A stretch of DNA of 64,000 nucleotides, from NCBI RefSeq assembly GCF_012275375.1, contig NZ_JAAZQJ010000005.1, forward strand, positions 368,599 to 432,598, in the 5' to 3' direction. The position numbers were made by a program, and so were the translations under genes. The notes beneath the pieces were generated by a model. The model made no database searches. It saw nothing but the letters and a program-made list of their open reading frames with translations, and was not told the DNA's origin. Positions 41,408-60,768 of the stretch are shown here, in pieces. Positions within the stretch are counted from its first letter, which is position 1; each line of letters opens with the position of its first letter. The stretch comes from Dyella sp. SG609. Its GTDB lineage: Bacteria; Pseudomonadota; Gammaproteobacteria; Xanthomonadales; Rhodanobacteraceae.

Positions 41408-41617
41408 ATGGCAAAGCTTACTGGCAAGTAGAGGAAGGGTCTCCTTTCCAGTGATTTCGGCCTTCCGGGGCAGCGCAAGTATCCGATGCCGGATGCTAGC
41501 CACGCCGCCAACGCCAAGGCTCGTGCTAGCCAGCAGGAAGCTAGGGGCAATCTGTCGCCGGCCGCTAAGGCCAAGATCGATAGCAAGGCCAATAAGATCT
41601 TGGGCAAGAAGAAATAA
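41408..41617 (+). CDS. DUF6582-like small phage protein, one in-frame TAG
   Basis: 69 aa with TAG at 41429 read as Gln. The N-terminus becomes MAKLTGKQRKGL followed by FGLPGQRKYPMPD, matching a common phage/bacterial family that begins MAKLTxKQR, where Q is conserved. Under the standard code only seven residues would be made. First of 21 recoded genes. Confidence 0.82.
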
Positions 41618-41619
41618 CC

Positions 41620-41826
41620 ATGGCTCAGGGGAATGAGGTGCTTCGTGATGCTGCTATGGCGTCTCCGCTGGCAGCGTTCTTCGGGGCCAGTTGGATCGCT
41701 GACATTCCCTGGGGGCCAATCTCCTATCTGCTGGCGAGCATCTACACCTCCATGCTCATCGTCTAGCTTGGATACAAGGGCATCAAGTGGGTGAGGGCTA
41801 AGCGCCATGGCAAGCACCCGACTTAA
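41620..41826 (+). CDS. Holin-like membrane protein, one in-frame TAG
   Basis: 68 aa with TAG at 41764 as Gln (SMLIVQLGYKGIKW). One or two hydrophobic segments (SPLAAFFGASWIADI, ISYLLASIYTSMLIV) and a basic C-terminus (RAKRHGKHPT). Position immediately before the endolysin and size support a holin or pinholin. Full length depends on amber decoding. Confidence 0.72.
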
Positions 41827-42283
41827 GGTCGGAGCTGGAGCCGCCAGTCTGGTTCTGAGCCTGGCCGCTGGCCTAGTAGTGCATTTCGAGGGCTACATTC
41901 CGCATACGTACGCCGATCCGGTTGGCATACCGACCATCTGCTACGGCCACACGGGTTCGGATGTTAACCCGGGCACGGTAGCTACGCAGGAAGAGTGCCA
42001 AAGGCTCCTAGAGGGCGATCTCGCAGTGGCCTATGCCGCGGTCTAGCGCTGTGTGCGAGTGCCACTAAGGCCGTATGAGGCAGCCGCCTTCACCTCTTTC
42101 ACATACAACGTTGGGCCTGCAGCTTTCTGCCAGTCAACGTTGGTCCGCAAGGCTAATGCTGGCGATATGCCGGGGGCCTGTGCAGAAATCAACCGCTGGG
42201 TTTATTCCAACGGTGAAAAGCTTCCTGGTCTAGTGCGTCGTAGGGCCGCAGAGCGCGCCCTTTGTGAGGGTAAGCAGTCATGA
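41807..42283 (+). CDS. SAR-type endolysin (GH24 lysozyme), one in-frame TAG
   Basis: 158 aa with TAG at 42044. N-terminal weakly hydrophobic signal-anchor, then catalytic Glu in HFEGY, Asp in YADPVG and CYGHTG, the E-D-T triad of R21/P22-type lysozymes. After TAG the domain continues RCVRVPLRPYEAAAFTSFTYNVG, an uninterrupted GH24 core. Truncation at the TAG would remove half the domain. Degrades peptidoglycan after holin triggering. Confidence 0.9.
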
Positions 42284-42915
42284 AAACCTTGGCACATCTC
42301 GCGGTCATCTGGTCCTTACTGGCCTTCGCGGGGTGCGCCTCTAGCCCGGTGGATAAGATCCACAAGGTTGCCGTCCATCTCACCATGGACAACGGTAGTT
42401 GCTCTGGCACAGTGGTTGGCAAGAACACCATCTTGACCGCTACTCATTGCTTGGCTGATGCGCATTCGCTCGCCATCGATGGAATTCCGGTGGTGGTCTA
42501 CAAGGCCTATGACGACAAGCACGATCATTTGTTGTTGGTGACCAGCCTGAGCTTTAGGGAAGCCGCGCTGCGCGGCCACGAGGCCAATCAGGGTGATTCT
42601 GTCTATGTGATCGGCAACCCTGGCGAGCTGGTTGATATCTACCGTCAGGGCAATGTCGCCGGGCACAAGAAGTTTCCTGAAGCATCGGCGACGCTGTACG
42701 ACCTGAACGGCTACTTCGGCGACAGTGGAGCGGGCATCTTCAACCGTGACGGACAGTTGATCGGCGTTATCTCGATCCTGTACCAGCAGGTTGGCGAGGG
42801 CTACATGAAGACCATGGGGTCATTCGACCTGGCATTTACTCCGGGCCAGTGGCGAGAGGCGGTCAACTTTGACACCTCCATGCCAGGCCTTATCTATTCA
42901 ATGAAATCGCCATGA
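42280..42915 (+). CDS. Trypsin-like serine protease lipoprotein in the lysis cassette
   Basis: 211 aa. Signal peptide with lipobox (LLAFAGCAS), then catalytic His in LTATHC, Asp in YDDKHDHLLL and Ser in FGDSGAGIF: a complete chymotrypsin-fold triad. No in-frame TAG. ATGA overlap with the endolysin gene. Unusual in a lysis cassette; may process envelope proteins or act in the lysogen. Confidence 0.85.
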   Translation: MKTLAHLAVIWSLLAFAGCASSPVDKIHKVAVHLTMDNGSCSGTVVGKNTILTATHCLADAHSLAIDGIPVVVYKAYDDKHDHLLLVTSLSFREAALRGHEANQGDSVYVIGNPGELVDIYRQGNVAGHKKFPEASATLYDLNGYFGDSGAGIFNRDGQLIGVISILYQQVGEGYMKTMGSFDLAFTPGQWREAVNFDTSMPGLIYSMKSP

Positions 42916-42986
42916 TGTTGATTATTGTGGCAATCGTGGCGATTTATCTATTCATCCTCAGCAAATACGGGGAGCCGTGCGAATGA
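42912..42986 (+). CDS. Tiny membrane peptide
   Basis: 24 aa (MMLIIVAIVAIYLFILSKYG...), a single transmembrane helix; ATGA-coupled to the protease. May be a lysis accessory. A further 8-codon ORF starts at 42983. Confidence 0.55.
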   Translation: MMLIIVAIVAIYLFILSKYGEPCE

Positions 42987-43271: not shown

Positions 43272-43419
43272 GCCGAACAACGGATGTGAATGGGTCAAAC
43301 CTATCTATCCGAGTAAGGACGACAGCCTGACAGACGGCACGGCAAGACAAATCCTCGATCACGACGAGACCGGCAAGCAGATTTGCGGCTGGTCTAAACC
43401 CACCAAGGAGACGAAATGA
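43165..43419 (+). CDS. Outer-membrane spanin lipoprotein (Rz1-like), overlapping Rz
   Basis: 84 aa from ATG at 43165, embedded in and extending beyond Rz. Lipobox LLLIALLASCKAG, proline/charged periplasmic part. The overlapping-frame pairing is a strong signature of a two-component spanin. No TAG. Confidence 0.82.
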   Translation: MLSRKPKSFPMRLSSGLVMLLLIALLASCKAGPATEPNNGCEWVKPIYPSKDDSLTDGTARQILDHDETGKQICGWSKPTKETK

Positions 43420-43586
43420 GCGTTCCCACCTGGCTCGCTGGCAGCACTGTTGTCATTTAGCGCTCGGCCAATGGTTACATCTGCATGCCCCGTGTTGGCG
43501 CAGATCCGACTGAATGCGTGGTGTTTGAGACCTTCGCCGCGCTGACGTATTACTTGGGCGTCAACTATCAACCTCCTGGTCCGTAA
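43416..43586 (+). CDS. Small late protein, one in-frame TAG
   Basis: 56 aa with TAG at 43458 (STVVIQRSANGYI). ATGA/TAATG overlaps on both sides show the reading frame is used end to end. Function unknown. Confidence 0.65.
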
Positions 43587-43783
43587 TGAGCAAGGGTAGC
43601 GATCGCAGGCCACCTGCTGTCGATGACAAGACGCTGGCTGACAATTGGTCGCGCATCTTTGGCAAGCATGATGGGGTGCGCGTAGGTGCTACTCCTGTCT
43701 CTAAAACAGGTAATGTCGGCGCAATTCCGACCACCCCCGCCATTAAGGGCAACGATGAATCACGGGAAGCGGGCGTATATTGA
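43586..43783 (+). CDS. Small conserved phage protein whose 3' half contains the suppressor tRNA
   Basis: 65 aa. The N-terminal part (MSKGSDRRPPAVDDKTLADNWSRIFGK) resembles a recurrent ~45-50 aa phage protein with a (D/N)NWxRIFG signature. The remainder reads through the tRNA at 43672-43742 and looks low-complexity. This suggests that a tRNA/HNH insertion removed the original stop. Confidence 0.6.
   Translation: MSKGSDRRPPAVDDKTLADNWSRIFGKHDGVRVGATPVSKTGNVGAIPTTPAIKGNDESREAGVY
43672..43742 (+). tRNA. Amber suppressor tRNA, anticodon CUA, Gln-type identity
   Basis: 71 nt. Acceptor TGGGGTG/CACCCCC with an open U1-C72, discriminator G and encoded CCA. D-arm GTAG-GTG-CTAC with only a 3-nt loop. 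Anticodon stem CCTGT/ACAGG, loop CTCTAAA (CUA at 43701-43703). T-arm GTCGG/CCGAC with loop CGCAATT. G2-C71, G3-C70, G73 and a weak first pair are GlnRS determinants. Lies in the lysis/packaging region of the recoded operon. Confidence 0.93.
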
Positions 43784-44180: not shown

Positions 44181-44384
44181 GTGAACGTCCTTGAGTCGAT
44201 TGACGAGCAAGTGGCCGGCATTGTCCGCACTTACGCCCAGGAGAACGAGCTGGCTATCCTGGTCAGAACCAATGGCAATGATGTACGTGTCATCGCTCCG
44301 AATGCTCAGCGCGACGTGTTAGCGAAGATGCTTCGTATCGCCGCAAGCATGCTCGAAGAACCAGTAAGCAGGCAGTTCAACTAA
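44181..44384 (+). CDS. Small hypothetical late protein, TAG-free
   Basis: 67 aa (MNVLESIDEQVAGIVRTYAQE), alpha/beta, acidic. No motif. Between HNH and terminase genes. Confidence 0.58.
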   Translation: MNVLESIDEQVAGIVRTYAQENELAILVRTNGNDVRVIAPNAQRDVLAKMLRIAASMLEEPVSRQFN

Positions 44385-44416: not shown

Positions 44417-44662
44417 ATGTCTCGCGGAGGTAAGCGCGAAGGCGCAGGCCGTCCGAAGGGCAGCCTCGATAAGAACAACAAATAGCTTCGGGAGATGATC
44501 CTAGAGGCGCTTGATCGCAAGGGCGGAGTTGACTACCTCGCCAAGCAGGCCGAAGAGCATCCAGGGCCGTTCATGAGTCTTCTGGCTAAAGTTCTGCCAA
44601 TGCAAGTGACGGGTGAGAATGGTGACCCCCTCAAGGCCAGCATTACGGTCACCTTTGAATGA
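44417..44662 (+). CDS. Terminase small subunit-like protein, one in-frame TAG
   Basis: 81 aa with TAG at 44483. MSRGGKREGAGRPKGSLDKNNK-Q-LREMILEALD: the GGKREGAGRPKGS start is typical of phage small terminases or accessory DNA-binding proteins. Short for a full TerS, but position directly before TerL (ATGA overlap) supports it. Confidence 0.75.
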
Positions 44663-45915
44663 CGGACGCCAAATTTCCCGCCAAGCTCAAGCCGTTGTTC
44701 AAGCCCATGCGCTACAAGGTGGCTCATGGTGGCCGTGGCAGCGCGAAGTCATGGAGCTTCGCCCGAGCACTCCTCATACTTGCCGCCTAGAAGCAGCTAC
44801 GCGTCCTTTGCACGCGAGAGGTGCAGAAGTCCATCAAGGACTCGGTGCACAAGCTCCTTGGCGACCAGGTACAGGCTCTTGGCCTGGGGTCATTCTACGA
44901 GGTGCAGCAAGCCGTCCTGAAGGGCGCCAATGGATCGGAATTCATCTTCTCCGGCCTTAGCGACTAGACGGCTGAGTCGATCAAGTCGTTTGAGGGTGTC
45001 GACATTGTATGGGTTGAGGAAGCCCAGGCAGTGAGCGACCGAAGCTGGTCTATCCTGATCCCGACCATCCGAAAGGACGGTTCGGAGATATGGGTTAGCT
45101 TCAATCCTGAGCTAGACACGGATTCGACATGGGTTCGGTTCGTTTAGAACAGGCCTCCCGATGCCTGGGTTGTTGAGGTCAACTATCACGACAATCCATG
45201 GTTTCCGGAAGTCCTAGAGAAGGAGCGGAAGCACGCGTAGGCAACGCTGCCGGATCCCGAGTACAGGAACATTTGGGAAGGCAAGTGCAAACCAGCCATC
45301 ACGGGAGCGATCTATGCTGATGAGGTCGCTGCAACGCAGACATCTGACCGTATCTGCGAGCTACCGTACGATCCGTCTATGAGGGTGCACGCAGTCTTTG
45401 ATCTTGGCTGGAACGACAAGATGTCGATCATCTTGGCTTAGCGGCATGTGAGCCAGATCCGCGTGGTTGAATACATCGAGGACAGCCACAAGACTCTCGA
45501 TCATTACTCGGCCGAGTTGAAGAACAAGAAATGGAATTGGGGCACGATTTGGCTACCCCATGACGGCCAGCATAAGGACTACAAGTCCGGCAAGTCAGCA
45601 GAGCAAATCATGCGTGATCTTGGTTGGGACGTGCGGATTATCCCTAACCAGTCCATTGAGGCAGGCATACGCAATGCCCGCCGCGGCTTTGCCTAGACTT
45701 ACTTCGACCGCAGCAAGACGGATCGACTTATTCAATGCCTCAAGCGGTATCGCCGAGGCGTCCCGACGACCACTGGCGAGCCTGGCGCACCCGTACACGA
45801 CGAATGGAGCCACGGGGCAGACGCATTTCGCTACCTCCACATCGTCGCCCCCAGCCTGAGTAACGAAGACTGGTCGACCAAGACGCTTAACTATCCGAGT
45901 CTCGCCATTACATGA
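44659..45915 (+). CDS. terL: Terminase large subunit (PBSX type), six in-frame TAG
   Basis: 418 aa with TAG at 44788, 44965, 45145, 45238, 45439 and 45694, all in frame. Walker A-like [30 protein letters not shown], Walker [10 protein letters not shown], nuclease DLGWND and C-terminal [13 protein letters not shown]. Length and domain order are complete when TAG is sense. Packages DNA with the portal. Confidence 0.93.
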
Positions 45916-48128
45916 GCTACGAACAGTACGACGAAGCTGAGGCCATTAAGCGTCAGAATGGTCCGATGACGGATGGCTAGCTGTGCGCCTTGATTGACCA
46001 TGAGCGGTCGAACGGCATCGGCCTGAACGACCAGCTTGCCTCGGATCGAGCCAAGGCCATGGCGTTCTATGTGGGCGACGCCCGCGGTGTCCTCGCCCCG
46101 CCCGATGTTGATGGCCGCAGCAAGATCGTCAGCAAGGAGCTGATGGAGGTCGTGGAATGGGCGATGCCCGTCTTCATGCGCATGTACTGCGGCACGGACG
46201 ACATCGTTAAGTTTGAACCAGAGGCGATGGGCGACGAGAAGGCCTGCAACGACGCCACGGAATACTGCTCCTATCTGCTGCACCGCAAGAACCCGGGTTT
46301 CGTCGTACTACATGACGCGATCAAGTCGGCCCTCATTACCCGTATCGGCGTGGTCAAGGCGTACTGCGATGAGCGCTGGGATGAACGGCAGGAATATTAC
46401 GAGAACCTTTCGCAGGTTGACGTGTAGGCGTTGAGCGCTGACGAATTTGTCGACGTGGTGAAGGTCGAAGAGGTTGAATAGGCCGACATCACCATTATGA
46501 ACGGTCAGGTTGGCGGTGCTCAGTAGCAGCCAGTGACCTACAACGTCACGGTAAAGCGCAAGGAGCGAAAGAGGCAGTTCAAGGTAGAGGGCGTTCCGCC
46601 TGAGGAAATGTGGTTCTCGAAGGACTCGCGTTATGTCGATGGGCTTCGCTGCATTGGCCATGATGTTCGTCGCACCATTTCTGATCTCCTAAGCCTGGGC
46701 TATGACGCAGAGCAGGTCTATAAGCTTCCCAAGGGCACGCTTGGCGACACATACGGCGAGAAGTACGAGCGTGAGCGCTACGACGGCTCATGGAGCATTG
46801 ACGAAGACGATTCGCTCGACATCAGCCAGCGCATTGTCATGCTCAATGAGTGCTACATCCGGGTGGATTTCGACGGTGATGGCATCTCGGAGTATCGTCG
46901 TGTCGTGAAGTGCGGCACGGTAGTTTTCGAGAATGATGTGGTTGAGGACCATCCCTTCGCCATCTTCTCGCCCGTTCTGATGCCGTACAAGCTCATTGGC
47001 CTCTCGATGTGGGATCTTGTTGAAGACCTGCAGCGCATCAAGACCGCGATTACCCGCCAGTACCTTGATAACCTTTACCTAGCCAATACCCCTCGGACAA
47101 CCGTTGTGGAGGGGCAGGTCAATCTTGACGACCTGCTCAATCCTCGTCCAGGCGGCCTGGTTCGCACTAAATCGCTGGACGCCATGAGTGTCATCCAGAC
47201 GCCTGACATTGGTGCCCAAGCGCTTGGTGGCATCCAGTTCTTCGATGGCGTGCGAGACGCAAGGACGGGCATCAAGGAGTTCTCGCAAGGACTTGTTGGC
47301 AACGAGCTGAGCAAGTCAAAAATCGGCTCAGAAGGCCTGCAGCAGCTCATGGATTAGGGCGCTCAGCGTGTTGAGCTGATGGCCCGCGTCTTTGCGGAGA
47401 CTGGCGTCAAGCGTATCTTCCAGCTGCTCCTGAAACTGGTCACGCAATACCAGGATCGACAGGAATAGGTCCGCATCTCCGGCAAGTGGATGACCATTGA
47501 TCCGCGTGCATGGAAGAACAACTATGACATGACGGTCTCGGTTGGTGTTGGCACGGCATCCAAGGATCGCCAGCTAGCCATGGCGATGCAGCTGCTACAG
47601 GTTCAATCGCAGGCCGCTCAATATGGCTTAGTCATGCCCCAGCAGGCGTACAACGCGCTTGAAGACATGGCGAGCGCCATGGGCAAGAAGGATGCTTCCC
47701 GATATTTCATGCCGCCCGATCAGGCTCCGCCGCAACCACCGCAGCCGTCTGAGGCTGATAAAATGATGCAGCTGGAGCAATTCAAGGTGCAAAGTCAGTC
47801 CCAGCTACAGTCGCAGAAGCACCAGAACGACGCTCAATTGGAAATCGTCAAGCAACAGGCCTAGGCTGCTCAGCAGCAACACGAGAAGGAGCTTGAGGCA
47901 CAGCGAAACCAGCTCAAGTTGGAGCAGGACGAGCGCTTGGCAACCGTCAAGGCGCAGCTAGACGCAGACCTGGCGCGTTACAAGGCCGAGTTGCAGTCCT
48001 AGACGCAGATTGAGGTGGCCCGCATCAATGCCGAGGCCAAGATCGCTGCGGCCAAGGCGATGGGCGCCAAGGACGCATCCACAGCTGACGAAGTGGTGGC
48101 CTACGAACAGCGGAACGAGCAGGAATGA
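45912..48128 (+). CDS. Portal protein (P22-like), eight in-frame TAG
   Basis: 738 aa with TAG at 45978, 46425, 46479, 46524, 47355, 47466, 47862 and 48000. Core features: LCALIDHERS...LNDQLASDRAKAM, WSIDEDDSLDISQRIVMLNECY, HPFAIFSPVLMPYKLIGLSM and IKTAITRQYLDNLY, typical of podovirus P22-type portals. The C-terminus is a Q-rich coiled coil where Gln at the TAG positions is natural. ATGA overlaps at both ends. Confidence 0.92.
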
Positions 48129-48418
48129 CAGACGACAAGGCAGAGCTTGAAATCAAGCGTGGTCAGGACGCCGCCCAACTATTGGCCCATCCACTTCTCG
48201 TTGACGCATTTGTGGCTATCGAATCGGAGATTTTAGAGAAATGGCAGAACTCGCCAGCCCGCGACGCGGAAGGCCGCGAAAAGCTGTGGACGATGCTTCA
48301 CCTGCTGCGAAGAGTGAAGGGTCATCTCGAATCTCATGTGGAAACGGGGAAGGTTGCCCAGGCCACTCTGGCGCAGAAAGCGGCCCGCGTAGCTGGGCTG
48401 AACTCGACATCGTTCTAA
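48125..48418 (+). CDS. Small late protein, TAG-free
   Basis: 97 aa, helical (DAFVAIESEILEKWQNSP, EKLWTMLHLLRRVKGHLESH). This kind of protein recurs between portal and scaffold in P22-like phages. Function unknown. Confidence 0.7.
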   Translation: MTDDKAELEIKRGQDAAQLLAHPLLVDAFVAIESEILEKWQNSPARDAEGREKLWTMLHLLRRVKGHLESHVETGKVAQATLAQKAARVAGLNSTSF

Positions 48419-48591: not shown

Positions 48592-49587
48592 ATGAGCAAT
48601 CCGGAAACGGAACTCAACGAAAGCCAGGACAATAACTCCGCGGTGGAATTGTCCGAGGAAGACATCCTTAAGCGACTTGAACCCAAAGAGGAAGAGGACT
48701 CCACGTCATCCGCCATTGGCGGAGACGATGAAGAAAATGGAGGCGACCAAGGATAGGCCGCAGGGCAGAAGGAAGAAGCCCAGGACGATAAGGAGGCTAC
48801 GCCAGAGGAACGCAAATGGCTTGCCAACAAGCACAAGATCACCGTCCAGGGTGAGGAACTGGAAATCTCCGCCGACGAAGCCTTTAAGGGCTATATGCGG
48901 CAGCAGGACTACACGCGCAAGACGACCGAAGCGGCAGAGCTAACCAAGCAGGCGCAGCAAGAACGTCAGTTTGTCCAGCAGGAATACGGCCAACGTATTA
49001 ACCAGCTCGATAACCTGTCGGCAGCGCTCTATCAGGAGCTTGTCGGGAATCAGGCCGAACTTGCCAAGCTCATCGAAACCGACCCGCAGGAGTATTTGCG
49101 GCAGCAGCAGCGCATGTCTCAAAAGGCCGCACTGCTGAATCAGGTAGACCAGCAACGCCAAGCCATCGACCAGATCCGGAAGAACGAGGAAGAAAAGGCC
49201 TTCCACGAATCCGTCAAGGTGAACGAGGCCAAGCTTCTGGATGCGCTGCCTGATTGGCGTGACTCAACGAAGCGTGGTGCCGAACAGCGAGAAATCGCCC
49301 AGCATCTCATTTCGCTAGGGTACTCGCCGGATGAGCTGAACAGTTTGACCGACCATCGCGCTGTCCTCATCGCCCGTAAGGCGATGCTATGGGACCGCGC
49401 CCAGGCCGTGAAATCCAAGCAGACTCAGGAGCAGAAGACCCCTCCGAAGGTCGTTAAGCCTGGCACGGCCAATTCCCCAACTAACGCCAAGACGCAGCAA
49501 ATCCAACAGCTCGCTCAGAAGGCCAAGCGGTCCGGGCGAGATGATGATGTGGTTGCGCTGCTCATGGCTCGCTCTGATAGAGGCTAA
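48592..49587 (+). CDS. Scaffolding-like head protein, one in-frame TAG
   Basis: 331 aa with TAG at 48754. Acidic N-terminus, then coiled-coil/Q-rich regions (YMRQQDYTRKTTEAAELTKQA) and ARKAMLWDRAQAVKS near the end. Position before the capsid gene and composition fit a scaffold. Without TAG decoding only a 54-residue fragment is made. Confidence 0.8.
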
Positions 49588-49589
49588 TC

Positions 49590-50531
49590 ATGACCATCGT
49601 TGCAAATACCTACACCACGTATACCGCCATCGGTTAGCGTGAAGACCTGTCGGATGTCATCGACATCATTTCTCCCACCGAGACGCCGCTTTATTCGTCT
49701 CTGAAGAAGTCCAAGTGCGTCGCCCGTTTCTTCGAGTGGCAGACCGACGCCCTGGCGGCCGCGGCCAACAACGCCCAGCTGGAAGGCGATGACATCAGTT
49801 CGTTCACCGCCGTCGCCCCCAGCACCCGCTGGGGCAATTACACGCAGATCAGCTACAAGAACTTCATCATCTCGGACACTGAAGAGGTGGTCGACAAGGC
49901 TGGCCGCAAGTCCGAAATTGCGTTCCAGAAGATGAAGAAGATGAAGGAGCTGAAGCGCGACGCGGAAGTCGCCCTGATCGGCAATCAGACCTTCAATGCC
50001 GGCGCAACGGGCACCGCCCGCCAGACCCGCGGTCTCGCCGGCTGGATCACCCAGGGTTCGGTGGGTGCCGGTACGGGTGCGTTTCCGATCCCGTCCAGCA
50101 ATACCGCCCCTGTGGCCGGTACGGCCCGTGCGCTTACTGAGTCGCTGGTCAAGTCGGCGATGCAGACGGCGTATACGGCAGGTGGCTCGCCTGGCGTTCT
50201 GCTGGTTCGCCCCTCGGACAAGGTGATTGTCTCGACGTTCTCCGGCAACGCAACCCGCTTCGAGCAGTCCGACAGCAACGAGTTGAACGCCGCGTTCGAC
50301 TTCTACGTGACCGATTTCGGTCGTCTGAATGTCGTGCCGGATCGCTTCTTCGGCTCTGAGAACTCGGCATACCTGCTCGATCTGGACCACGTCACGTTCA
50401 AGACCCTGCGTAACGTGGAGGCCAAGCCGCTGGCGAAGACCGGTGACGCCGAAAAGATGCTGCTGACCTGGGAATATGGCCTGCAGATGGACAACAAGGA
50501 CGCTCATGCGGTGATTCGCGACCTGACCTAA
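49590..50531 (+). CDS. Major capsid protein (SU10/DUF5309-like), one in-frame TAG
   Basis: 313 aa with TAG at 49635, codon 16: TYTTYTAIG-Q-REDLSDVIDIISPTETPLYSSL, then FEWQTDALAAAANNAQLEGDD and YTQISYKNFIISDTEE. This matches the HK97-fold DUF5309/SU10 capsid pattern. The TAG near the start means essentially no capsid can be made without suppression. A terminator follows. Confidence 0.9.
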
Positions 50532-50577: not shown

Positions 50578-50889
50578 ATGTCGTTCAAAAGTCCGATCAT
50601 CTGCCTTGATGTGAACCTCACTGGCGTGAATATCACAACGGGTGCTGCATCAGCGTCGGCATCCATCCCCAACAACTAGGCAGGCATTGTCGCCAGGTAT
50701 GTGCGTGTTTCGGCGACCGCTAATGCACATGTGCGCGTAGGCAAGACTACGGCGACGGCACTCGCCACCGACATGCTTGTGACACCCAATGAGGCGATCA
50801 TCCTTAACGTGACCGGAAGTGACGTGATCGCCGCCATCCAGGACACTGCTGCCGGCACGGTCAACGTGGTACCCATCGAATGGGCGTGA
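50578..50889 (+). CDS. Small head-associated protein, one in-frame TAG
   Basis: 103 aa with TAG at 50677 (ASIPNNQAGIVARYVRVSA). Beta-rich sequence with TATALATDMLVTPNEAIIL. Position after the capsid suggests a decoration or head protein. No strong family match. Confidence 0.68.
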
Positions 50890-51766: not shown

Positions 51767-53223
51767 TGCGCATTGATCTTCAGGGGTTCTCGCCCGACCT
51801 CGATCCGGCGGTTCCTGGCGTTATCACTGACTGCGACCAGATCGTGCCGTCTACCCAAGGCTTCACGGCAGCCAATAGCCGGGTTGATGTGGGTCTGTCT
51901 GCCCTGGACAGTGCGTGTAAGGGCGCCTATGTGGGCACCCTCCTGGATGGCTCCAAGCGCATCGTGGCTGGAACTCAGGCCAAGCTTTGGGATGTCACGG
52001 CCAGCACTTGGACGGATCGCAGCCAGGCTGGCGGATATACGGGCCTGAATCGCTGGCGGTTCACGATGTTTGGCAACAATGTGCTCGCCACCAATCGGGC
52101 GCAGCGCATCCAACAGGCTGCTCCAAGCGCCAATTTTGCAGATATCGCCACTGCACCCGCCGCAGCGGTCATGTGTTCAGCCTCAGGCTTTGTCCTCGTA
52201 GGCGATGTATCCGACCTTACCGGATCGTTCGGTGATCAGCCTGATGGGTGGTGGTGTTCTGGCCTGTTCAACCAGGCGGTGTGGACGCCCGCTGTATCCA
52301 CCCAGTGCGCTAATGGCCGCCTAGTTACCGCGCCTGGCCGCATTACGGCGATGCGCGAGCTTGGCGACGATGTCGTGGCCTACAAGGCCAAGTCGATGTT
52401 CCTGGGGCGATATGTCGGCCCTCCCGTTGTGTGGAGTTGGCAGCGCATTCCAGGCGATATCGGGTGCTCAGGTCAGGAGTCTGTGGTCGTCGTGGGTTCT
52501 TCCCACTTTTTCATCGGTCCGGCGGACATCTATGTCTATGACGGTACGGTCCCGCGGTCCATTGGCGCTCCTATTCGGCAATGGTTCTTCCAATCACTGA
52601 ACGGATCGCAGCGAGCCAACATTATTGGGGCTGTCGATCTGGCCCGCGACCTTGTGTACTGGTATTACCCTTCCGTGGCTTCAACCACGGGAATCTGTGA
52701 TAGCTGCATCGTCTACAACATCCGCACGAATCAGTGGGGAAGGGCATCGCAGAGCATCGAATCTGCTGTTGAGTATGCGTCGGGTGCTGTCACCTATGAT
52801 GGTCTTGGCACGCTGTATTCGACCTACGACAATCTGCCAAACATCGCCTACGACTCGCCGTTCTGGATCAGCGATCAGACTGTGCCCGGAGTGATTGGCA
52901 CCGATCACAAGCTCTATTCGCTGACGGGAAGCCCCGGAGCCTCTTATCTGGTTTCTGGTGACTTTGGAGACCAGACCAATTGGAGCATGTTCCGGCGAGC
53001 CACCCCCCGTTACAGGACGCAGCCGACCACCGGAATCGGCACGAACTACTACCGCGGCAATCTTGGCGTTGCTCCGACCCAAGATCAGACGATTTCGCAG
53101 TCAAGCCAGGCTCGTTTCGACTTCCGGCGCATCGCCCGTTGGCACCGCGTGCGTTTCGACTGGTCTGGGCCTGTGTCTCTCAACGGTCTTGACGTCGATA
53201 TCCAGCAGGCGAGCCGCGAATGA
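51766..53223 (+). CDS. Tail hub / packaged-DNA stabilisation-like protein, TAG-free
   Basis: 485 aa, beta-rich with repeated Trp/Gly-rich strands (LNRWRFTMFGNNVLATN, VVWSWQRIPGDIG), compatible with the P22 gp10-type hub. It contains many Gln residues but not one TAG, in contrast to almost every neighbouring structural gene. Overlaps both neighbours. Confidence 0.75.
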   Translation: MRIDLQGFSPDLDPAVPGVITDCDQIVPSTQGFTAANSRVDVGLSALDSACKGAYVGTLLDGSKRIVAGTQAKLWDVTASTWTDRSQAGGYTGLNRWRFTMFGNNVLATNRAQRIQQAAPSANFADIATAPAAAVMCSASGFVLVGDVSDLTGSFGDQPDGWWCSGLFNQAVWTPAVSTQCANGRLVTAPGRITAMRELGDDVVAYKAKSMFLGRYVGPPVVWSWQRIPGDIGCSGQESVVVVGSSHFFIGPADIYVYDGTVPRSIGAPIRQWFFQSLNGSQRANIIGAVDLARDLVYWYYPSVASTTGICDSCIVYNIRTNQWGRASQSIESAVEYASGAVTYDGLGTLYSTYDNLPNIAYDSPFWISDQTVPGVIGTDHKLYSLTGSPGASYLVSGDFGDQTNWSMFRRATPRYRTQPTTGIGTNYYRGNLGVAPTQDQTISQSSQARFDFRRIARWHRVRFDWSGPVSLNGLDVDIQQASRE

Positions 53224-53537
53224 GAATTCAGACCGACCCCAGGCTGCCCCAGGATCTGCAGCAGCAGATTTTGAGGCTGACGCAGCTCATCCGAGACATT
53301 ACTTTTTAGCTCAATGCCCTGTCTGAGGGTTAGCTGCAAGCCGTCACGAACGCTCAAACCGCAGTCCCGTCTTCTGGCAGGTGGAACTAGGGCGATTTCG
53401 TCGCTAACAGCGCCGTATCGGAGCTTGGCACGGCAGGATCGAAGTACATCATTCGTGGTTGGCGGTGCACGGTGGCGGGCGATTTCTCCGCTACTGCCCC
53501 AACCTTTGTCCAAGAACGCGCACTGACGGGTAATTGA
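53220..53537 (+). CDS. Small tail-associated protein, three in-frame TAG
   Basis: 105 aa with TAG at 53307, 53331 and 53388. The last gives SGRWN-Q-GDFVANSAVSELGTAGSKYIIRGW, close to a common phage motif WxxGDFVxN with AELG and a final GW. Helical N-terminus then beta domain. Function unknown. Confidence 0.75.
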
Positions 53538-53978
53538 ATGCTTCCGATGCTATCTGGCACCACGAACGACGGGAAGATGAAGTTTCAGGCGGTCCCGGTG
53601 TAGCTTGTTCGACAGTTTTGGTCTGAAGTTCTGCCTGGCATCCAGCAGATACGCAGCACGAATGATGAGCCGTGGATGCCTGAGGACGTCTATGCAGCCC
53701 TAGCTGCCAATAAGGCCACCCTGTATGTCTTCCATGCAGAGGACGGCCACCTTGCGGGCTTCATTGTTTGCGAAGTAGTGGTGATGCCATTCGCCGTGTC
53801 GGCTGACCTGAACATCTGGCTTGGCTGGTCGGACGCCAAGGGCCAAGGACACTACGGGTTTGAGGTTGCCAAATATATTTAGAGTGCGGCAGGCCTGAAC
53901 CGAACTTTATTTTGGACGCCGCAAGACGCATCTTGGGTCGGCAAGTTCCGACGCGTTACCAGTCTCTACGAGGTCTAA
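53538..53978 (+). CDS. GNAT-like tail-region protein, two in-frame TAG
   Basis: 146 aa with TAG at 53601 and 53880. VLPGIQQIRSTNDEPWMPEDVYAAL and a strand-rich middle (AGFIVCEVVVMPF, LNIWLGWSD) match a small GNAT-like protein often found in podovirus tail modules. Acetyltransferase activity is doubtful. Confidence 0.75.
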
Positions 53979-53980: not shown

Positions 53981-55036
53981 ATGGGTGGCAGCTCCTAGCC
54001 GAAGAACACCACGACCACCACTCAGGTATAGCTGCCTGCGTGGCTGTCGAACGATTATCAGAACTACATCAACTAGGCGCAGGCGGTAAATAACTAGCCC
54101 TATCAGCAGTACAACGGACAGACCGTTGCCGGGCTGACGCCTGAGCAGATGGGCGCGCTCACCATGGCGGGCTAGGGCGCTGCAGGCCAGGGTACCAACC
54201 AGGCCGCTCAGGCCGCCCAGCTGCAGAACGTTCTCAACGGCGGCTATAGCGTCAATCCAAGCGCCAACCCGTTCCTGGGCCAGACCACGAACGTCGGCAC
54301 GAACCGGTACGCCGGCCAGAATCCCTACCTGGGGCAGATGGTCAACCAGGCCCAGCAAAACATTGTCGACAGCTACAACAAGAACACGTCACCGGCTCTC
54401 GCTGCGCAGTTCGCACAGAACGGTGCCTTCGGCGGCAGCGCCTACAACGACGCCATGCAGCAGTCGCAGAACACCTTGGCCCAGAACCTCGGCCAGGTGT
54501 CTACGAGCCTCTACGGCCAGGACTACCAGAACCAGCAGCAGCTCGCCGAGAACGCACTGAATCGCAATGTGCAGGCTCAGCAGACCGACCTTGCTCGTAA
54601 CGCGTCGTTGTATCAGCAAGGCATCGCTAATCAGCTCGGTGCAGCCCAGCAGAATGCCGGCTTGATTCTCAACGCATCGCAAGGCGTGACGGGTGCCAAT
54701 GCCCTGCAGAGCCAGTTCTTGGGGCAGTACGGCAACCTTGCTGCGGGTCAGCAGCAGGTCAATCAAGGGATGCTCGATCAGGCTGCGAACAACTGGTACA
54801 ACCAGGCATATGGCTACGATCAGCAGCGTCTGGCGAATATGGGGCAGGCGCTCAACTCGGTTCAGGGTGCGTTCTAGGGTCAATCGACCACTGGTTTGAA
54901 TCCCGCATACAAGCCGCGGAGCACCGGAGGAGCGCTCGCATCAGCTGCGGGCGGAGCCGCCACTGGCATGGCCGTAGGCGGTCCATGGGGTGCTGCTATC
55001 GGTGGTGGTGTTGGCCTGCTTGGCTACTATCTGTGA
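53981..55036 (+). CDS. Internal virion / DNA ejection protein, six in-frame TAG
   Basis: 351 aa with TAG at 53996, 54029, 54074, 54095, 54173 and 54875. The N-terminus becomes MGGSSQPKNTTTTTQVQLP and NNQPYQQYNGQTVAGLTP, a motif recurring in podovirus ejection proteins with Gln at these positions. Very Q/N/A-rich; C-terminal glycine-rich membrane-active segment (GGPWGAAIGGGVGLLGYYL). Confidence 0.85.
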
Positions 55037-55043: not shown

Positions 55044-55373
55044 ATGACCGGATTCAACTTTCTCTCAGGAATGCAGGCATCTCCTTAGGTCGGATATCAG
55101 ATTGGAGCGTATGGCTAGCCCCAACATTATGTGGGTCAGCTGCCATCGTGGCTCGATCCATCGCAACAGCTATAGCAGCAGATGAACTTCGCTACGGGTG
55201 AATAGGGTGGCATCCCTAGCTATGTGAATGGACCGCTATCTAATCAGGGAGCCTCTGGATTCAGCATGGGTGATCGGCTGAGGCGGCTCATGTCATCGCA
55301 AGGTCTATCCAATCAAAACCTAGGTAATATCGGCCTTCAGATGTTGATGAATGGCTGGGGGAGTCACAGCTAA
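55044..55373 (+). CDS. Small Q-rich virion protein, four in-frame TAG
   Basis: 109 aa with TAG at 55086, 55116, 55173 and 55203. Contains PSWLDPSQQLQQQMNFATGEQGG. TAATG coupling to the next gene. Role unknown, probably ejection-module. Confidence 0.7.
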
Positions 55374-56767
55374 TGGCTTGGTATAGCGGTCTATTCGGTG
55401 ACACCAGCGGGCTGAGCGATTAGGATCAGCAGAAGATCGCAAATCAGGGGCTTCTGCGCGCTGGCCTCGGTATCCTGTCGGCTAACGGCCAAGTGGGAGT
55501 AACGCCGTTTCAGGCAATTTCTAGCGGACTTCTCGGTGGCATGGATAGTGTCCAGCAGGGTGCGTCCAATCTCCAAACTTCACGCTACAGGCAGGCACAG
55601 ATGCAGTCTGCGATGGCCGATATGCAGCGTAAGCAGCAGATGCAGGCGCTTGCGACCAAGTTTGCCAAGCCTGACGGCACGTTCGATATGCAGGGCTATC
55701 AGTAGGCGCTGAGCAGCATTGATCCGCAAGCATCTATTGAGATGCAGCAGAATCTGCTTCATTCCAAGTTGTACGAGGCGCAGGCGCAGAAGGCTCAGGC
55801 GGATGCTCGTGCAAAGGCCGTTCGGCAAATCAATTCGGGCAACAACATCGTTACCCAAGAGCAGCAGGAGGACGGCTCCTGGAGGCCACTAGCGACAGCG
55901 CCACGCTGGCAGCCTCAGCAGTCCGCTGGATCGGCTCTTGCTCAGCAGATTGCCCTCATGCGCCAGTTTGGTGCAACCGACGATGACATTCGGGCGAAAC
56001 TCGGCATTCAACCAAGGGGTGGTCAACCGCAGCAAAGCAATTTGAGCGGTTAGGACTACTTGGATAGTCTTCCCGATCAAGAGAAGAACATGGTTCAGGC
56101 CATCGTGGATGGCCGGTATCCGGTCCCCACCGGACGACAGGCCATGAGTCCATAGTGGCAATCTGCCATCGCCGCTGCTCAGCAGGTAGACCCCGCGCTG
56201 GATGCCGGAAGCTACAAATCTCGCGCAGCCGCACGGCAGAACTTCACATCCGGAAAAGGCTCGATGGAAATTAAGGCGCTCAACACGCTTGCGGGCCATC
56301 TACAGACCCTTTCTGACAGCCTGGATTAGATGGACAACTCCAATATCTCTCTCGTAAACCGCGCAAGCAACTTCGTTGGATCGGAGTTTGGCGGTAAGCG
56401 TGGTCAGGCCCTGGCTCAGTTCAACACCTCTGCCAAGGCGGTGGGCGATGAGGCTGCAAAGGTCTTCGCTGGCGGCCAAAGCGCGCTGGGTGATCGCAAG
56501 GAAATCGGCGAATCGCTGAATCCCAACGCTCCTAACAGCAATCTGCGCGCAACCCTGAAGACCTACGCCGAACTTGTATAGAGCCGGTTGGCTGCGATCC
56601 AGGATTAGGCCAATCAGGCCATGGGTTACGGCTCACGCTCCATTTAGGTCGTTACGCCGAAGGCTGCGAAGACGTTCCAGAAGTTTGCCGGCGGGTCGGC
56701 TGGCGCGCCCTCCGCACAGGTCAACCTTAACCAGCAAGATCCTCTCGGCCTTGGGATTGGACAGTGA
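55373..56767 (+). CDS. Internal virion / ejection protein, eight in-frame TAG
   Basis: 464 aa with TAG at 55421, 55703, 56051, 56153, 56327, 56579, 56606 and 56645. ANQGLLRAGLGILSANG and FQAISSGLLGGM near the start, AQAQKAQADARAKA helices, and the motif ARQNFTSGKGSMEIKALNTL with GHLQTLSDSLD, characteristic of podovirus internal proteins. Complete only with TAG as sense. Confidence 0.85.
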
Positions 56768-58824
56768 GCATTCTTGACGATATCCGGTAGCAGTACCCGC
56801 AGTACGCGGACGTTTCGGACGGAAAGCTGGCAGCAGCTATCCGCAAGAAGTATTACGCCGACATGCTGCCGCAGGACTTCTATCGTCAGGCTGGCTTGGG
56901 TCATCTTGTTGGCCTGGATGATGCTCCGGCGAACGGCCTTGGCACGGATTGGCAGAACTATGCTGCCGGCATGGGTAAGTCTGTGGTGGACAACCTGCGT
57001 GGTCTTCAGCAGGTCGGCGCGGGTCTTGCCTCACACCTTCCCTTGGTGGGTGATCGAGCATAGGCCGCATACGACCGTCTGAAGCAGGAGCAGTCCGACG
57101 CCAACGCCCAGGATGCCCCCCTGATGGGGACGAAGGCTGGCGTCCTTGGAAACATCTCCGGTTAGGCACTGCAAGCCATTGCTGGCGGCACAGCCCTTAA
57201 GGGCGCCGGCTTGGCAGGCTCGATTGTGCCTGGCGGATATACGGGCGCGGCTATCTCTGGTGGTCTCCAGGGCGCCATCCAACCCCTTTCCGCCGACCAG
57301 AGCGAATGGAGTCGCTTGGGAAATGCCGCCATCGGTGCTGGGGCAGGCTTGGGTGGTCACGGCATCGTCAATGGCCTTGGCGCCACCTATCGCGGAGCCA
57401 AAGCGCTGCTCGCCCCATTCTTCGATAAGGGGCAAGACCAGATCGTCGCCAATACGCTCACCCGATTCGGCGGTAATGCAGCCAAGAATGCGACTGCCAG
57501 TCAGATTCCTGGTGTGAATGCGAGCATGGCGGAACAGACTGGCGATGCCGGTCTAGCTTAGCTTCAGCGTGCGGTATTTGAGCGAGATCCTGCTCTCATG
57601 CAGCAGTTCACCGAGCAGTAGGCGAAGAATAATGCCGCTCGCTTGGGGCTTCTTCAGGGCGTGGCCGGTACGCAGGATCAGCTAGATAATGCCATTGCAC
57701 GTCGAAGTGCGACAGCCGATATGCGCTACCAACAGGCGTTCCAAGACAACGATTCGCAGCAGATCGCCAGGCAGTGGAGCGCCGATCAGACGAGGAAGCA
57801 AGCTTTAGACGCTGCACAACAGGCTTAGGCGCAGCAGTATGGCCTGCCCCTGTCGCCGCAATAGGGCGCTACCCTGCAATCGGCAATGGATCAGGCGGAT
57901 AAGATCGTTCAGCCTTCCGCGCGAATGCAGGAACTTGCACAGCGACCGGCGATCTAGCAGGCCGTAAAGACTGCAAAGACCATTGCAGATAATCAGGGGA
58001 TTGATCTTGGCGACCCGCTAACTTCGCTTCGCGGGCAGCACTACGTTAAGATGGCCCTTGATGATGCATTGAACACCGCGCAACAGCAGGGCATCGGAAA
58101 GGTTGAGCAAAGCGCCATTGCAAACACCAAGGCTGCATTTGTAGCGGAACTTGAGCGGCAGAATCCTGCTTATCGTGATGCGCGCTTGGCATTCCGCGAC
58201 ATGAGTCAGCCGGTTAATTAGCTTGAGCTTGGCCGCGGACTTCTCTCGCGGGTTACTAGCCCACAGGCTGGTGAATTCGGCCAGATTGTAGATCAGCTCG
58301 GTAACCCCGTACTTACGCCAGACCGATTCGGTAATGCGGTAAAGCAGCTTGACTCACTCGCATAGAAAGTGACGGGTCAGAAGCAGGCGAGTGCATCTTC
58401 TATCCTGGCTCCGCAGCAGAAGGACGCGGTTACATCACTCCTTGGTGACCTGTCCCGTCTGAAGGTGGCCAACAACACTGGTCGTTCAGTCGGGTCCAAT
58501 ACTGTCCAGAACCTTGCAAGCCAGAATCTTTTGAGCGAGATAGGCAATGGCATAGGCCTGCCATCACTGGCTGACAGCGGTCTACTTGGCCGCCTCACGA
58601 CACCAGTCAGCAAGGTCTATGGGCTGTTCAATGTCCCTGACCAAATCAAAGAAAAGCTTGCCCAGGTTATGCTCAATCCGCAATCGGCCGAATCTCAAGC
58701 CATCATTCGCCGAATGACTCCGGCACAGCGATCAGCGTTTGCGCAGTACGCCGCTAGTGCTGGTGGGCTTATAGGCCAATCTGCCGGTCTCGGTATCAGT
58801 CAGAAGCCGGCGCTTCAGCCATGA
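56764..58824 (+). CDS. Large internal virion protein, ten in-frame TAG
   Basis: 686 aa from GTG. TAG at 56788, 57061, 57163, 57559, 57619, 57826, 57862, 57955, 58219 and 58363, the highest number in the phage. MSILDDIR-Q-QYPQYADVSDGKLAAAI is a typical start. Glycine-rich membrane-active middle, then helical QRPAIQQAVKTAKTIADNQGI and SQPVN-Q-LELGRGLL, where Gln is expected. Probably ejected with DNA. Confidence 0.88.
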
Positions 58825-58950
58825 ATCCGGCATCCATTTGACTAAGGCCATAGCACCAAGCCGAGCGGTCCCGAACAGCACAATGGCTATCACCGGCCCC
58901 ACTACGAACCCAGCCGCAATCCTGAAAAAGGTCATCTGAGGATCAGACAT
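58732..58950 (-). CDS. Antisense small membrane protein
   Basis: 72 aa from ATG at 58950 (MSDPQMTFFRIAAGFVVGPVIAIVLFG), one or two transmembrane segments then a basic tail (WMPDSWLKRRLLTDT). Occupies the only gap between two sense genes and overlaps the 3' end of the ejection gene. Protein-like composition suggests it is real; could be an exclusion or fibre-module membrane protein. Confidence 0.5.
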   Translation of the reverse strand: MSDPQMTFFRIAAGFVVGPVIAIVLFGTARLGAMALVKWMPDSWLKRRLLTDTETGRLAYKPTSTSGVLRKR

Positions 58951-60286
58951 GCCCGTACCTGTAAAAATGGCGGATTTGTTCACCATCGCCGCTTCGAATA
59001 GCCCGGCTGGCTCCGATCCCATCGGCAATAGCCTGGACGACTATCTGAGGGCGGTGTAGGCCATTATACGCTCTACGAATGCCCTGGCTTCGGCGACTCT
59101 GGCGGCCGGCTCTACGACCGATCTAGGCTCGGCAGACGCCGAATCCGTCCAGATCACCGGATCGGCAAGCATCTCGTCCTTTGGCACGACTGCTGCGGGT
59201 ATTGTCCGCGAGTGCCGATTCGCTGGCGCCTGCACCATCGTTAATTCCAGCGCTATCGCCATTCCAGGTGCGGCAAACATCACTACCGCGGCTGGCGATG
59301 TGATTCGTTTCCGCTCCCTCGGCTCTGGCAACTGGATCTATGTCTGCGGCACCCAATAGCCTGGCTATTTGCCGGTGGCCGGTGGAACTATGACCGGTTC
59401 CGTAACCTTTGCGCCGACTGCAGCCTTGGGCAATACAGCCGGCAACTTCTACGTGCCGACTCTGTTCCAGTAGGCCACGTCGAATAACGATCAGCTCGTT
59501 ACCCAGCACACCCGAGTCTCTAATGGCTCAGATTGGACGACGGCTGTCATGAGCATCTATCGAAAGGTAGACTCGTCGCAGCATGGTTTTGTGTAGTTCG
59601 GTGAGGCCACTTCGGGCACCGGCTTGGCGTTCGGGTCCGGCTCGTCTACCTATGCGACCATGTCAGGCGCTGGTGCATGGTCCTTCTCTAGCCGGCCTAC
59701 GTTCAACGGTAACGCTGCCTGGGACGCTGGCAACTTCAATCCTGCCAACTATGCAGCTCTGGCTGGCGCGATCTTCTCGGGTCTCATTACAGCCAACGGC
59801 AATATGTAGGTGAACAGCCTGTTCAACCAGAGCATCGGCACCGTTGGTACGCAAACCAACCTATCTAACTTCGGCTGGGGCAACGGTGTGCCGCGTTGGA
59901 AGCAGTGGCTGGAAACCAACGCCGACTTCTCGTTTTACTCCTACGATTCGGCAGGCTCGACGCCGCGCAAGACGCTTAGCATCGTGAACACGACGGGCGT
60001 ATGTACGGCACCGGACTTCCAGTCGCTATCGGATGTAAGCCTGAAGTCCAATATCAAGCCGCTTGATCGTGGTCTCTAGGCACTCCTTAAGTTAGCCCCG
60101 TGCTCTTATGAGAAGGATGGCAGGAGTGAAATCGGCTTCATCGCCCAGGATGTGGCGGAAGTGGTGCCGGAGGCTGTGGCGCGACGCTCTGACGGCCTCA
60201 TGACCCTATCCCATGGTCAGCTGACAGCCCTCATCACCAACGCGCTGAAGGAGCTTGCTGGGCGCGTTTCGGCGCTTGAGGCATAA
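58949..60286 (+). CDS. Tail fibre with C-terminal S74 chaperone domain, six in-frame TAG
   Basis: 445 aa with TAG at 59057, 59357, 59471, 59594, 59807 and 60077. N-terminus AGSDPIGNSLDDYLRAVQAII binds the virion. C-terminus SDVSLKSNIKPLDRGLQALL with IGFIAQDVAEVVPEAV and SHGQLTALITNALKEL is the intramolecular chaperone/peptidase S74 domain with its Ser and Lys, which trimerises and cleaves itself off. Host-recognition protein. Confidence 0.92.
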
Positions 60287-60288
60287 CC

Positions 60289-60768
60289 ATGGCTGTTCCG
60301 TCCAATCCGAAGCTATCTGACGTTTACACCGAGTTCGGGGCGCCCACAGGAACGTCCCTATCTGCATTCCTCCGCGGTGGAGCGTGGGTGCCGAACACGG
60401 CCGCTAACGCTGGCGTTCCAACAGCCTTACCCATCAGTCTTTCCTAGCTCGCCGGGGCCGTGAAATACACCCCCATGTCAGTCTCTGCCGGCAACGTCTC
60501 AGGCAGCACGAACTCGGCCGTTTCTAACGACACTATTGGATCGTCCTCGGCCACCGTAACGGGCGGGTTGGCACCGTTCACTTACGCATGGACCTACATC
60601 AGCGGCGATTCGTTCGGCATCAGTTCGCCAAGTACGCAGGGAACGAGCTTTACGAGGCCTGGACGCCCCCCCGCAGGCCTCTACACCGGCACCTACCGCT
60701 GCACCGTGACTGACGCCACATCGGCTACAGCGTTCAAAGACATCACGGTCACGGATAACCGCATCTAA
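60289..60768 (+). CDS. Fibre-associated protein, one in-frame TAG
   Basis: 159 aa with TAG at 60445. PKLSDVYTEFGAP...GVPTALPISLS-Q-LAGA follows the common phage tail motif ISLSQ(F/L), where Q is nearly invariant. The C-terminal part (TVTGGLAPFTYAWTYISG, YRCTVTDATSATA) is an Ig-like domain. Likely a receptor-binding accessory protein. Confidence 0.83.

What the first reader, a model, noticed from the sequence alone, without database searches (positions are those of the whole stretch)
41408..60768. Prophage late region uses TAG as a sense codon, most likely glutamine
Seen directly: 21 consecutive-module genes contain 67 in-frame TAG codons, with no in-frame TAA/TGA and no frameshift, and gene ends overlap normally. 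Decay by C-to-T change would also turn CAA into TAA and CGA into TGA, which is not seen. Known families place Gln at several of these sites: MAKLTGKQR, YATLQDAI, NNQPYQQY...VAGLTP, ISLSQ, PVNQLELG, CWNWQ. Inference: code 15-like (TAG=Gln) during lytic growth in a standard-code gammaproteobacterial host. A standard-code annotator would call the late region a string of pseudogenes.
Basis: partly seen in the sequence, partly recalled or inferred. Interest (0 to 1): 0.97.

Follow-up and report, generated by a model that had tools for sequence, protein, structure and literature searches.

The report
Prophage that recodes TAG as glutamine
A dormant virus in this bacterial genome carries 67 TAG "stop" codons inside its late genes and its own unusually small gene for a TAG-reading tRNA, which is predicted to make the cell insert glutamine at TAG when the virus multiplies.

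Summary
Confirmed and extended. Twenty-five late genes (41408-60768) hold 67 in-frame TAG codons in 21 genes; all 25 end in TAA or TGA. Standard-code ORFs fill 83% of the early region. In relatives, Gln fits the window's TAG columns better than the runner-up Glu by 293 log units; against five standard-code relatives Gln is best in 28 of 28 TAG-carrying records examined. dN/dS of 0.09-0.14 to four recoded relatives speaks against decay.

New: a CUA-anticodon tRNA missed by default ARAGORN (43672-43742), with a shrunken D arm and encoded CCA. It and five relatives covary as a cloverleaf (8 of 19 pairs changed on both sides). All 20 distinct CUA tRNAs compared have an unpaired 1-72, G2-C71 and G73. 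The phage group runs from 0 TAG and no CUA tRNA found, through 3-5, to the window's 66. The compact tRNA lies beside three different head modules in same-family genomes.

The host has prfA and glnS, and no CUA tRNA was found in it. TAG=Gln phages are known; this is a small temperate one with graded relatives and an unusual tRNA shape. Translation is untested.

The parts
22572..22591 (.). left attachment-site repeat (19 of 20 bases match the right one)
   Evidence: direct repeat D2; a 16-base core occurs three times in the genome: both ends and an intact tRNA-Arg(CCU) gene elsewhere
22646..23641 (-). tyrosine integrase, ends in TAG (12 more codons if TAG is read)
   Evidence: PF00589; stop and extension
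29867..30712 (-). RecT recombinase, standard code
   Evidence: PF03837
32885..33538 (-). HTH repressor-like gene, ends in TAG (130 more codons if TAG is read)
   Evidence: PF13443; stop
33607..33960 (+). Cro-like HTH gene, divergent from the repressor
   Evidence: PF01381
35110..36450 (+). DnaB-like helicase, no TAG
   Evidence: PF03796/PF00772
41408..41617 (+). first TAG-containing gene, 1 TAG
   Evidence: phrog_16160 over its full length
41620..41826 (+). small gene, 1 TAG
41807..42283 (+). endolysin, 1 TAG
   Evidence: phrog_7
42280..42915 (+). protease, 0 TAG
   Evidence: phrog_9683
43416..43586 (+). 56-aa ORF, 1 TAG
43672..43742 (+). compact suppressor tRNA, anticodon CUA, encoded CCA, U1.C72 mismatch, G73
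   Evidence: Rfam tRNA 23.3 bits, below the 29-bit cut-off; covariation with five relatives; model R1, built partly from it, 96 bits
43755..44144 (+). HNH endonuclease, 1 TAG
   Evidence: phrog_1872
44181..44384 (+). small gene, 0 TAG
44417..44662 (+). probable small terminase gene, 1 TAG (name by position only)
   Evidence: phrog_11043, unknown function
44659..45915 (+). large terminase, 6 TAG
   Evidence: phrog_3717
45912..48128 (+). portal, 8 TAG
   Evidence: phrog_1216
48125..48418 (+). small gene, 0 TAG
48592..49587 (+). scaffold, 1 TAG
   Evidence: phrog_3927
49590..50531 (+). major head protein, 1 TAG
   Evidence: phrog_1328; alignment A1
50578..50889 (+). small gene, 1 TAG
50880..51164 (+). 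small gene, 1 TAG
   Evidence: phrog_3982
51164..51766 (+). virion structural protein, 3 TAG
   Evidence: phrog_2941
51766..53223 (+). virion structural protein, 0 TAG
   Evidence: phrog_3287
53220..53537 (+). small gene, 3 TAG, no PHROG match
53538..53978 (+). gene, 2 TAG, no PHROG match
53984..55036 (+). DNA ejection protein, 6 TAG
   Evidence: phrog_4287
55044..55373 (+). gene, 4 TAG, no PHROG match
55373..56767 (+). gene, 8 TAG, no PHROG match
56764..58824 (+). large gene, 10 TAG
   Evidence: phrog_5880
58949..60286 (+). tail fibre, 6 TAG
   Evidence: phrog_1699 and others
60289..60768 (+). Hoc-like decoration protein, 1 TAG (weak match)
   Evidence: phrog_2973, E 3e-5
61191..61210 (.). 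right attachment-site repeat, inside a copy of the 3' half of tRNA-Arg(CCU)

Best explanation
The late genes of this 38.6-kb prophage hold 67 in-frame TAG codons whose columns fit glutamine best in relatives, and they are likely translated as glutamine by the prophage's own compact CUA-anticodon tRNA (43672-43742), predicted to be charged by the host's glutaminyl-tRNA synthetase once late transcription starts. Shown by sequence: the TAGs, their Gln columns, the purifying selection, the standard-code frames of the early region, the covarying CUA tRNA, and the host's prfA, glnS and lack of a detected CUA tRNA. Inferred: in lysogeny the host's standard code serves the repressor and integrase (both end in TAG); on induction the late transcript, which contains the tRNA, raises the suppressor level, and the suppressor competes with host RF1 at TAG so that lysis, packaging, head and tail proteins can be completed. 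Relatives with 0, 3-5, 8-32 and 44-58 TAGs suggest the reassignment is gained, deepened and perhaps lost repeatedly as suppressor tRNAs are exchanged.
For: Counts. Identity: opposite window TAG, 126 of 244 sense residues in relatives are Gln, next Glu 20; Gln best in 28 of 28 TAG-carrying records examined against standard-code kin. Genes intact: PHROG matches; dN/dS 0.09-0.14 to L103, L104, L105, L119. Early/late split. tRNA. Gln acceptor elements: 20 of 20 with G73 and G2-C71, 18 of 20 with G3-C70; these are in the bacterial Gln identity set of PMC9976931 (passages). tRNA goes with TAG: of the 31 MCP-clade records (MCP at least 68% identical, window counted), 26 carry TAG; 17 of these have the tRNA locus held and all 17 have a CUA tRNA, 9 are cut before it. 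Of the 5 with 0 TAG, none of the 2 with the locus fully held (L117, L130), the 2 partly held (L106, L116) or the 1 cut (L108) shows one. Fisher 0.006 with the two, 0.0002 with four. Host.
Against: No expression or peptide data. Plain folding of the window tRNA alone is not exceptional (z -1.08) and its minimum-energy fold is not the cloverleaf; the case rests on covariation. Pair 1-72 is mismatched, whereas the known Gln element is U1-A72. In three of six compact tRNAs the last anticodon-stem pair is unpaired. G279's copy ends CCG, and its late module has few TAGs. The late-only claim has blemishes: the early ORFs were chosen as open in the standard code; one in-frame TAG lies in an early-gene match in G236; early genes of relatives sometimes end in TAG. 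In-frame TGA appears 1-3 times in aligned frames of 12 MCP-clade loci (9 distinct records), TAA in none of that clade. Opposite window TAGs, standard-code kin have a Gln majority in only 12 of 35 columns, though plain CAG/CAA columns give only 95 of 227. dN/dS is higher against standard-code kin (L106 0.18, L117 0.32), and dS is near saturation in five of the six comparisons.
Confidence: 0.9

Rival explanations
1. A decaying prophage whose late genes gather amber pseudogene mutations.
For: A standard-code annotator sees broken genes.
Against: 0 internal TAA/TGA, dN/dS 0.09-0.14 to four recoded kin, the same pattern in many other records with TAG/CAG turnover, bases before TAG broadly spread (A16 C19 G13 T18).
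Confidence: 0.01
2. TAG is read as Gln, but the decoding tRNA comes from elsewhere and 43672-43742 is a non-functional tRNA relic.
For: Default ARAGORN rejects it, Rfam score below cut-off, odd D arm and T loop.
Against: No CUA tRNA among the host's 47 distinct detected tRNAs; the same compact form kept with compensatory changes in five other genomes or records, each with in-frame TAGs; at the same place, upstream of the terminase, as ordinary CUA tRNAs in kin.
Confidence: 0.06
3. The tRNA is charged with more than one amino acid (for example Gln with some Trp, Tyr or Ser), so TAG is ambiguous.
For: U1.C72 departs from U1-A72; L103, L104 and L144 copies have long variable arms as Ser/Leu/Tyr tRNAs have (the comparison is recalled).
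Against: Gln is best in each of the 28 records examined, including those three (L144 by only 6 log units).
Confidence: 0.08
4. The TAGs are leaky regulatory stops giving mostly truncated products, with readthrough as minor forms.
For: Host RF1 is present; TAG is followed by G more and by T less often than CAG, as if termination still competes; TAG sites are shared beyond chance with some kin (L119 22 against 6.7 expected, L103 13 against 4.8).
Against: 6-10 TAGs in single genes such as terminase, portal and the 686-aa gene; with many distant kin shared sites are at chance level (for example L107 1 against 1.0), so positions are not generally kept.
Confidence: 0.03

Closest known systems
TAG=Gln (code 15) phages, incl. 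crAss-like and Lak phages (Borges 2022: recalled and via citing papers; Peters 2022, PMC9523058: passages; PMC11210395: passages and part 1 of its main section)
   Same: in-frame TAG read as Gln, enriched in late structural and lysis genes, phage-encoded suppressor tRNA, standard-code host
   Different: 38.6-kb lambda-organised prophage with att sites and a podovirus-like head module in a gammaproteobacterium-like genome. PMC9523058 calls the trait particularly prevalent in phages of Firmicutes and Bacteroidetes; PMC11210395 adds sporadic cases in other families such as Demerecviridae, so spread beyond the well-known lineages is already noted
Theta-ribozyme-linked suppressor tRNAs of gut phages (PMC10879173, passages)
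   Same: tRNA-based late code switch
   Different: CCA is encoded; no ribozyme match in an Rfam scan up to E 10, though whether Rfam holds theta ribozymes was not checked
Podoviral head module of Vibrio/Pseudomonas/Manatee Spring phages
   Same: portal 29.5-37.7% (40 rows listed) and MCP 40.2-47.3% identical (12 rows listed)
   Different: no phage record at 60% identity or more to portal or MCP in a collection of 50,697 (E 1e-5)
Canonical tRNA (RF00005) and mitochondrial D-arm-reduced tRNAs (the latter recalled)
   Same: cloverleaf, CUA anticodon, CCA
   Different: 3-4 bp D stem with 4-base loop, altered T loop in five of six; below Rfam cut-off in the window

Membership tests
TAG=Gln recoded phage | in-frame TAG in conserved genes, no in-frame TAA/TGA | tested here: met
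TAG=Gln recoded phage | TAG columns are Gln columns | tested here: met
TAG=Gln recoded phage | phage-encoded CUA suppressor tRNA | tested here: met
   gene and covariation; activity not testable
TAG=Gln recoded phage | recoding concentrated in late/lysis genes | tested here: met
   67 TAG in 21 of 25 late genes; standard-code frames fill 83% of the early region; early ORFs were chosen as open in the standard code
TAG=Gln recoded phage | host uses TAG as stop | tested here: met
   prfA present, no CUA tRNA detected; host gene ends were not tallied
TAG=Gln recoded phage | Gln peptides across TAG | not testable with these tools
   needs mass spectrometry
crAss-like or Lak phage | head and packaging genes of those groups | tested here: not met
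   best PHROG and phage-record kin are other podoviruses; no direct comparison with crAss-like proteins was run
Temperate lambda-organised phage | integrase, att repeats, divergent repressor/Cro, replication and late operon | tested here: met
Temperate lambda-organised phage | inducible to infectious virions | not testable with these tools
Rfam tRNA RF00005 | score over gathering cut-off | tested here: not met
   23.3 against 29 bits
Bacterial tRNA-Gln acceptor identity set | G73, G2-C71, G3-C70 | tested here: met
   window; 18 of 20 tRNAs have all three
Bacterial tRNA-Gln acceptor identity set | U1-A72 pair | tested here: not met
   1-72 mismatched in 20 of 20

The most novel reading that the evidence does not exclude
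A compact, D-arm-reduced glutamine suppressor tRNA is an exchangeable code-switch cassette of lambda-like prophages: it sits upstream of whatever late module recombination supplies (three unrelated head modules here), whose TAG count then climbs from zero, so the clade shows codon reassignment in progress. The same switch makes lytic commitment one-way, because the prophage repressor gene ends in TAG in 9 of 11 recoded records examined and would be extended (by 7-130 codons in the five computed) once the suppressor appears.
Probability: 0.3. Interest if true: 0.92.

Novelty: new variant of a known kind. Interest (0 to 1): 0.82.

Why it matters
How a stop codon becomes a sense codon is usually seen only after the event. 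Here one phage group spans 0 to 66 TAGs with and without a suppressor tRNA, in small temperate phages, some lying in bacterial genome assemblies, so order of events, cost and use of a code switch could be tested by induction and gene removal. PMC11210395 found a CUA suppressor tRNA in only 375 of 715 phages predicted to read TAG as Gln; a compact tRNA that default ARAGORN misses is one possible reason for the rest. Such prophages will also be mis-annotated as strings of pseudogenes.

Tried and rejected
Decay, frameshift and host-suppressor readings were tested and rejected. A portal scan of genome contigs found no relative; an MCP-profile scan found five distant ones with 0 TAG. A scan of viral contigs for the compact tRNA motif gave four loci: two known (the L137 and L127 records) and two without homologues of the window's late genes or a tRNA-like continuation, taken as chance (L216, L218). 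The tRNA-like hit in standard-code L130 is not CUA. DNA similarity to phage records: none. Host naming failed: RpoD gives only gammaproteobacterial kin at 66-69% in the rows listed. A link between repressor amber stops and recoding is not established: one of two standard-code controls (L255) also ends in TAG. Gain/loss direction on the MCP tree is unresolved (7 open forks, long branches). The first idea that the integrase too is regularly amber-terminated did not hold: L091's ends in TGA. No structure prediction and no search of the 5.8-billion-protein set was run.
Full report
Observation. Reading TAG as sense opens 25 head-to-tail genes at 41408-60768 that stop only at TAA (13) or TGA (12). 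TAG makes up 66 of 471 Gln-type codons (TAG+CAG+CAA) in the 24 genes. In the early region 35 standard-code ORFs cover 83% of the bases and hold 193 CAG/CAA and 0 TAG; I chose them as open in the standard code, so that zero is partly built in. Their homologues in relatives mostly end at the same point without an earlier TAG.

What it is. The prophage lies between 20-base repeats at 22572 and 61191 (19/20), the right one within a copy of the 3' half of the host's tRNA-Arg(CCU), whose intact gene is elsewhere. It has an integrase, RecT, a repressor and Cro pair, DnaB, NinB, then lysis, HNH, terminase, portal, scaffold, major head, ejection and fibre genes. L001, an IMG/VR contig, is identical to the window over 22,214 bases and is not an independent case.

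What TAG means. In 15 other records found with the portal the same genes carry in-frame TAGs, and sites shift between CAG, CAA and TAG. With TAG masked and near-duplicates collapsed to eight groups, 126 of 244 sense residues opposite window TAGs are Gln; Gln beats Glu by 293 natural-log units. As a second design, only five standard-code relatives (L117, L106, L130, L116, L108) were used as reference: Gln is the best residue for 28 of 28 TAG-carrying records examined, with margins from 3.5 (L114) to 77 (L103). These records are not all independent, and shorter ones such as L014 were not put in. dN/dS between the window and L103, L104, L105, L119 is 0.09-0.14, and 0.18 and 0.32 against standard-code L106 and L117.

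The decoding tRNA. ARAGORN finds only a host tRNA-Met in the window, but a CUA tRNA upstream of the terminase in 12 of 16 portal loci. Rfam gives a sub-threshold tRNA at 43672-43739 of the window (23.3 bits, cut-off 29) with anticodon loop CUCUAAA and encoded CCA. The same compact form is in L137 and L127, in a prophage of G263, and, by covariance model R1, in G236 and G279. With R1, 232 of 233 same-family genomes have some match, as ordinary tRNAs score up to 44 bits, but only 4 score over 75 (G000, G263, G236, G279). Across the six sequences 97.4% of cells pair, 8 of 19 pairs change on both sides, and the slid controls reach 44-55% paired and at most 2 such pairs. The D arm is a 3-4 bp stem with a 4-base loop. 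G236 and G279 were found by the model, so they are not independent finds of it, but their sequences were not used to build it. Two chance matches of a looser motif were discarded.

Charging. The host has glnS. All 20 distinct CUA tRNAs compared have G73 and G2-C71, 18 have G3-C70, and the other acceptor pairs are intact while 1-72 is always mismatched. PMC9976931 (passages) lists G73, U1-A72, G2-C71, G3-C70 and U35 for bacterial Gln and says pairs 1-72 and 3-70 matter. That a mismatch serves as well as U1-A72 is my inference.

A graded series. Thirty-one records, the window counted, have an MCP at least 68% identical. In the late genes held, 5 have 0 TAG (L106, L108, L116, L117, L130), 5 have 3-5 (L122, L123, L124, L126, L128), 14 have 8-32 and 7 have 44-66; the counts depend on how much of each record is held. 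Of the 26 with TAG, 17 have the tRNA locus held and all 17 have a CUA tRNA (15 by ARAGORN, the window and L127 by their compact form); 9 are cut before it. L117 and L130 (0 TAG, locus held) have none, nor do L106 and L116, held in part. On an MCP tree zero-TAG records are interspersed among recoded ones, so several gains or losses are likely, but forks are weak and recombination is likely. L107 and L109, nearly identical in MCP, share 12 TAG sites (1.3 expected) yet carry different CUA tRNAs: the tRNA can be swapped under a standing recoding. The window shares sites beyond chance with L119 (22, expected 6.7) and L103 (13, expected 4.8) but at or near chance level with most others. In G263 18 late-gene matches hold 43 TAG (in 14 of them) and the plus-strand early matches none; minus-strand ones were not counted. 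G236 carries a P22-like head module, with 33 TAGs in 10 large ORFs that I picked from a mechanical list, and G279 an SPP1-like module with few (the likenesses are recalled readings of the PHROG hits), each next to the compact tRNA.

How it likely works (inferred). Lysogeny and early genes are read by the host code. The late region holds both the TAG genes and the tRNA, so suppression would rise only with late transcription. TAG is followed by G more (45% against 33% for CAG, p 3e-7) and by T less (9% against 14%, p 0.004) over 14 records that are not independent, as expected if RF1 still competes. The repressor gene ends in TAG in 9 of 11 recoded records examined (window, L089, L092, L094, L253, L254, L257, L259, L225; not L252, L241), and in 1 of 2 standard-code ones (L255, not L260). 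Repressors were chosen by eye next to the early switch and checked with Pfam; none was identified in two more records (L256, L258), and a near-duplicate (L090, TAG) was left out. Readthrough would lengthen them; whether that matters is untested.

What is known. Code-15 phages with suppressor tRNAs and late-gene recoding are in print (PMC9523058 and PMC10879173: passages; PMC11210395: passages and part 1 of its main section; Borges 2022 not held). PMC9523058 puts them mainly in phages of Firmicutes and Bacteroidetes; PMC11210395 reports sporadic cases elsewhere, such as Demerecviridae, and a CUA suppressor tRNA in 375 of 715. The listings showed me no paper on a recoded lambda-like prophage of a proteobacterium, a compact suppressor tRNA or such a graded series; I opened only five papers, and subscription papers are mostly not held. 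I file it as a new variant of a known kind.

Noticed in passing
window 32885 and 22646; L089, L092, L094, L253, L254, L257, L259, L225: Prophage repressor genes of several types end in TAG (9 of 11 recoded records; 1 of 2 standard-code controls), the window integrase too.
   Followed up: partly
window 43586-43783: A small conserved ORF (MSKGSDRRP...NWSRIFG) runs into or through the suppressor tRNA gene; similar reading frames in relatives.
   Followed up: partly
L144:9270-9441: CUA tRNA and a tRNA-Gln(UUG) in tandem in a recoded relative.
   Followed up: no
L103:3408-3494, L104:4398-4487, L144:9270-9363: CUA suppressor tRNAs with long variable arms that nevertheless match Gln columns.
   Followed up: partly
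window 17047-18252: A second integrase right after tRNA-Met: probably a separate element at about 17.1-22.5 kb into which the prophage inserted.
   Followed up: no
window 26942-27288: Long 6-base (GTAGCC/GTTGCC) repeat in the early region, probably inside a Gly/Asn/Tyr-rich repeat gene.
   Followed up: no
G000:C10:113897-114044 (L083): Two low-scoring adjacent tRNA genes of odd type (Pro-CGG-like and Leu-CAG-like) in the host genome.
   Followed up: no
14 recoded records: Base after TAG is G more and T less often than after CAG.
   Followed up: partly
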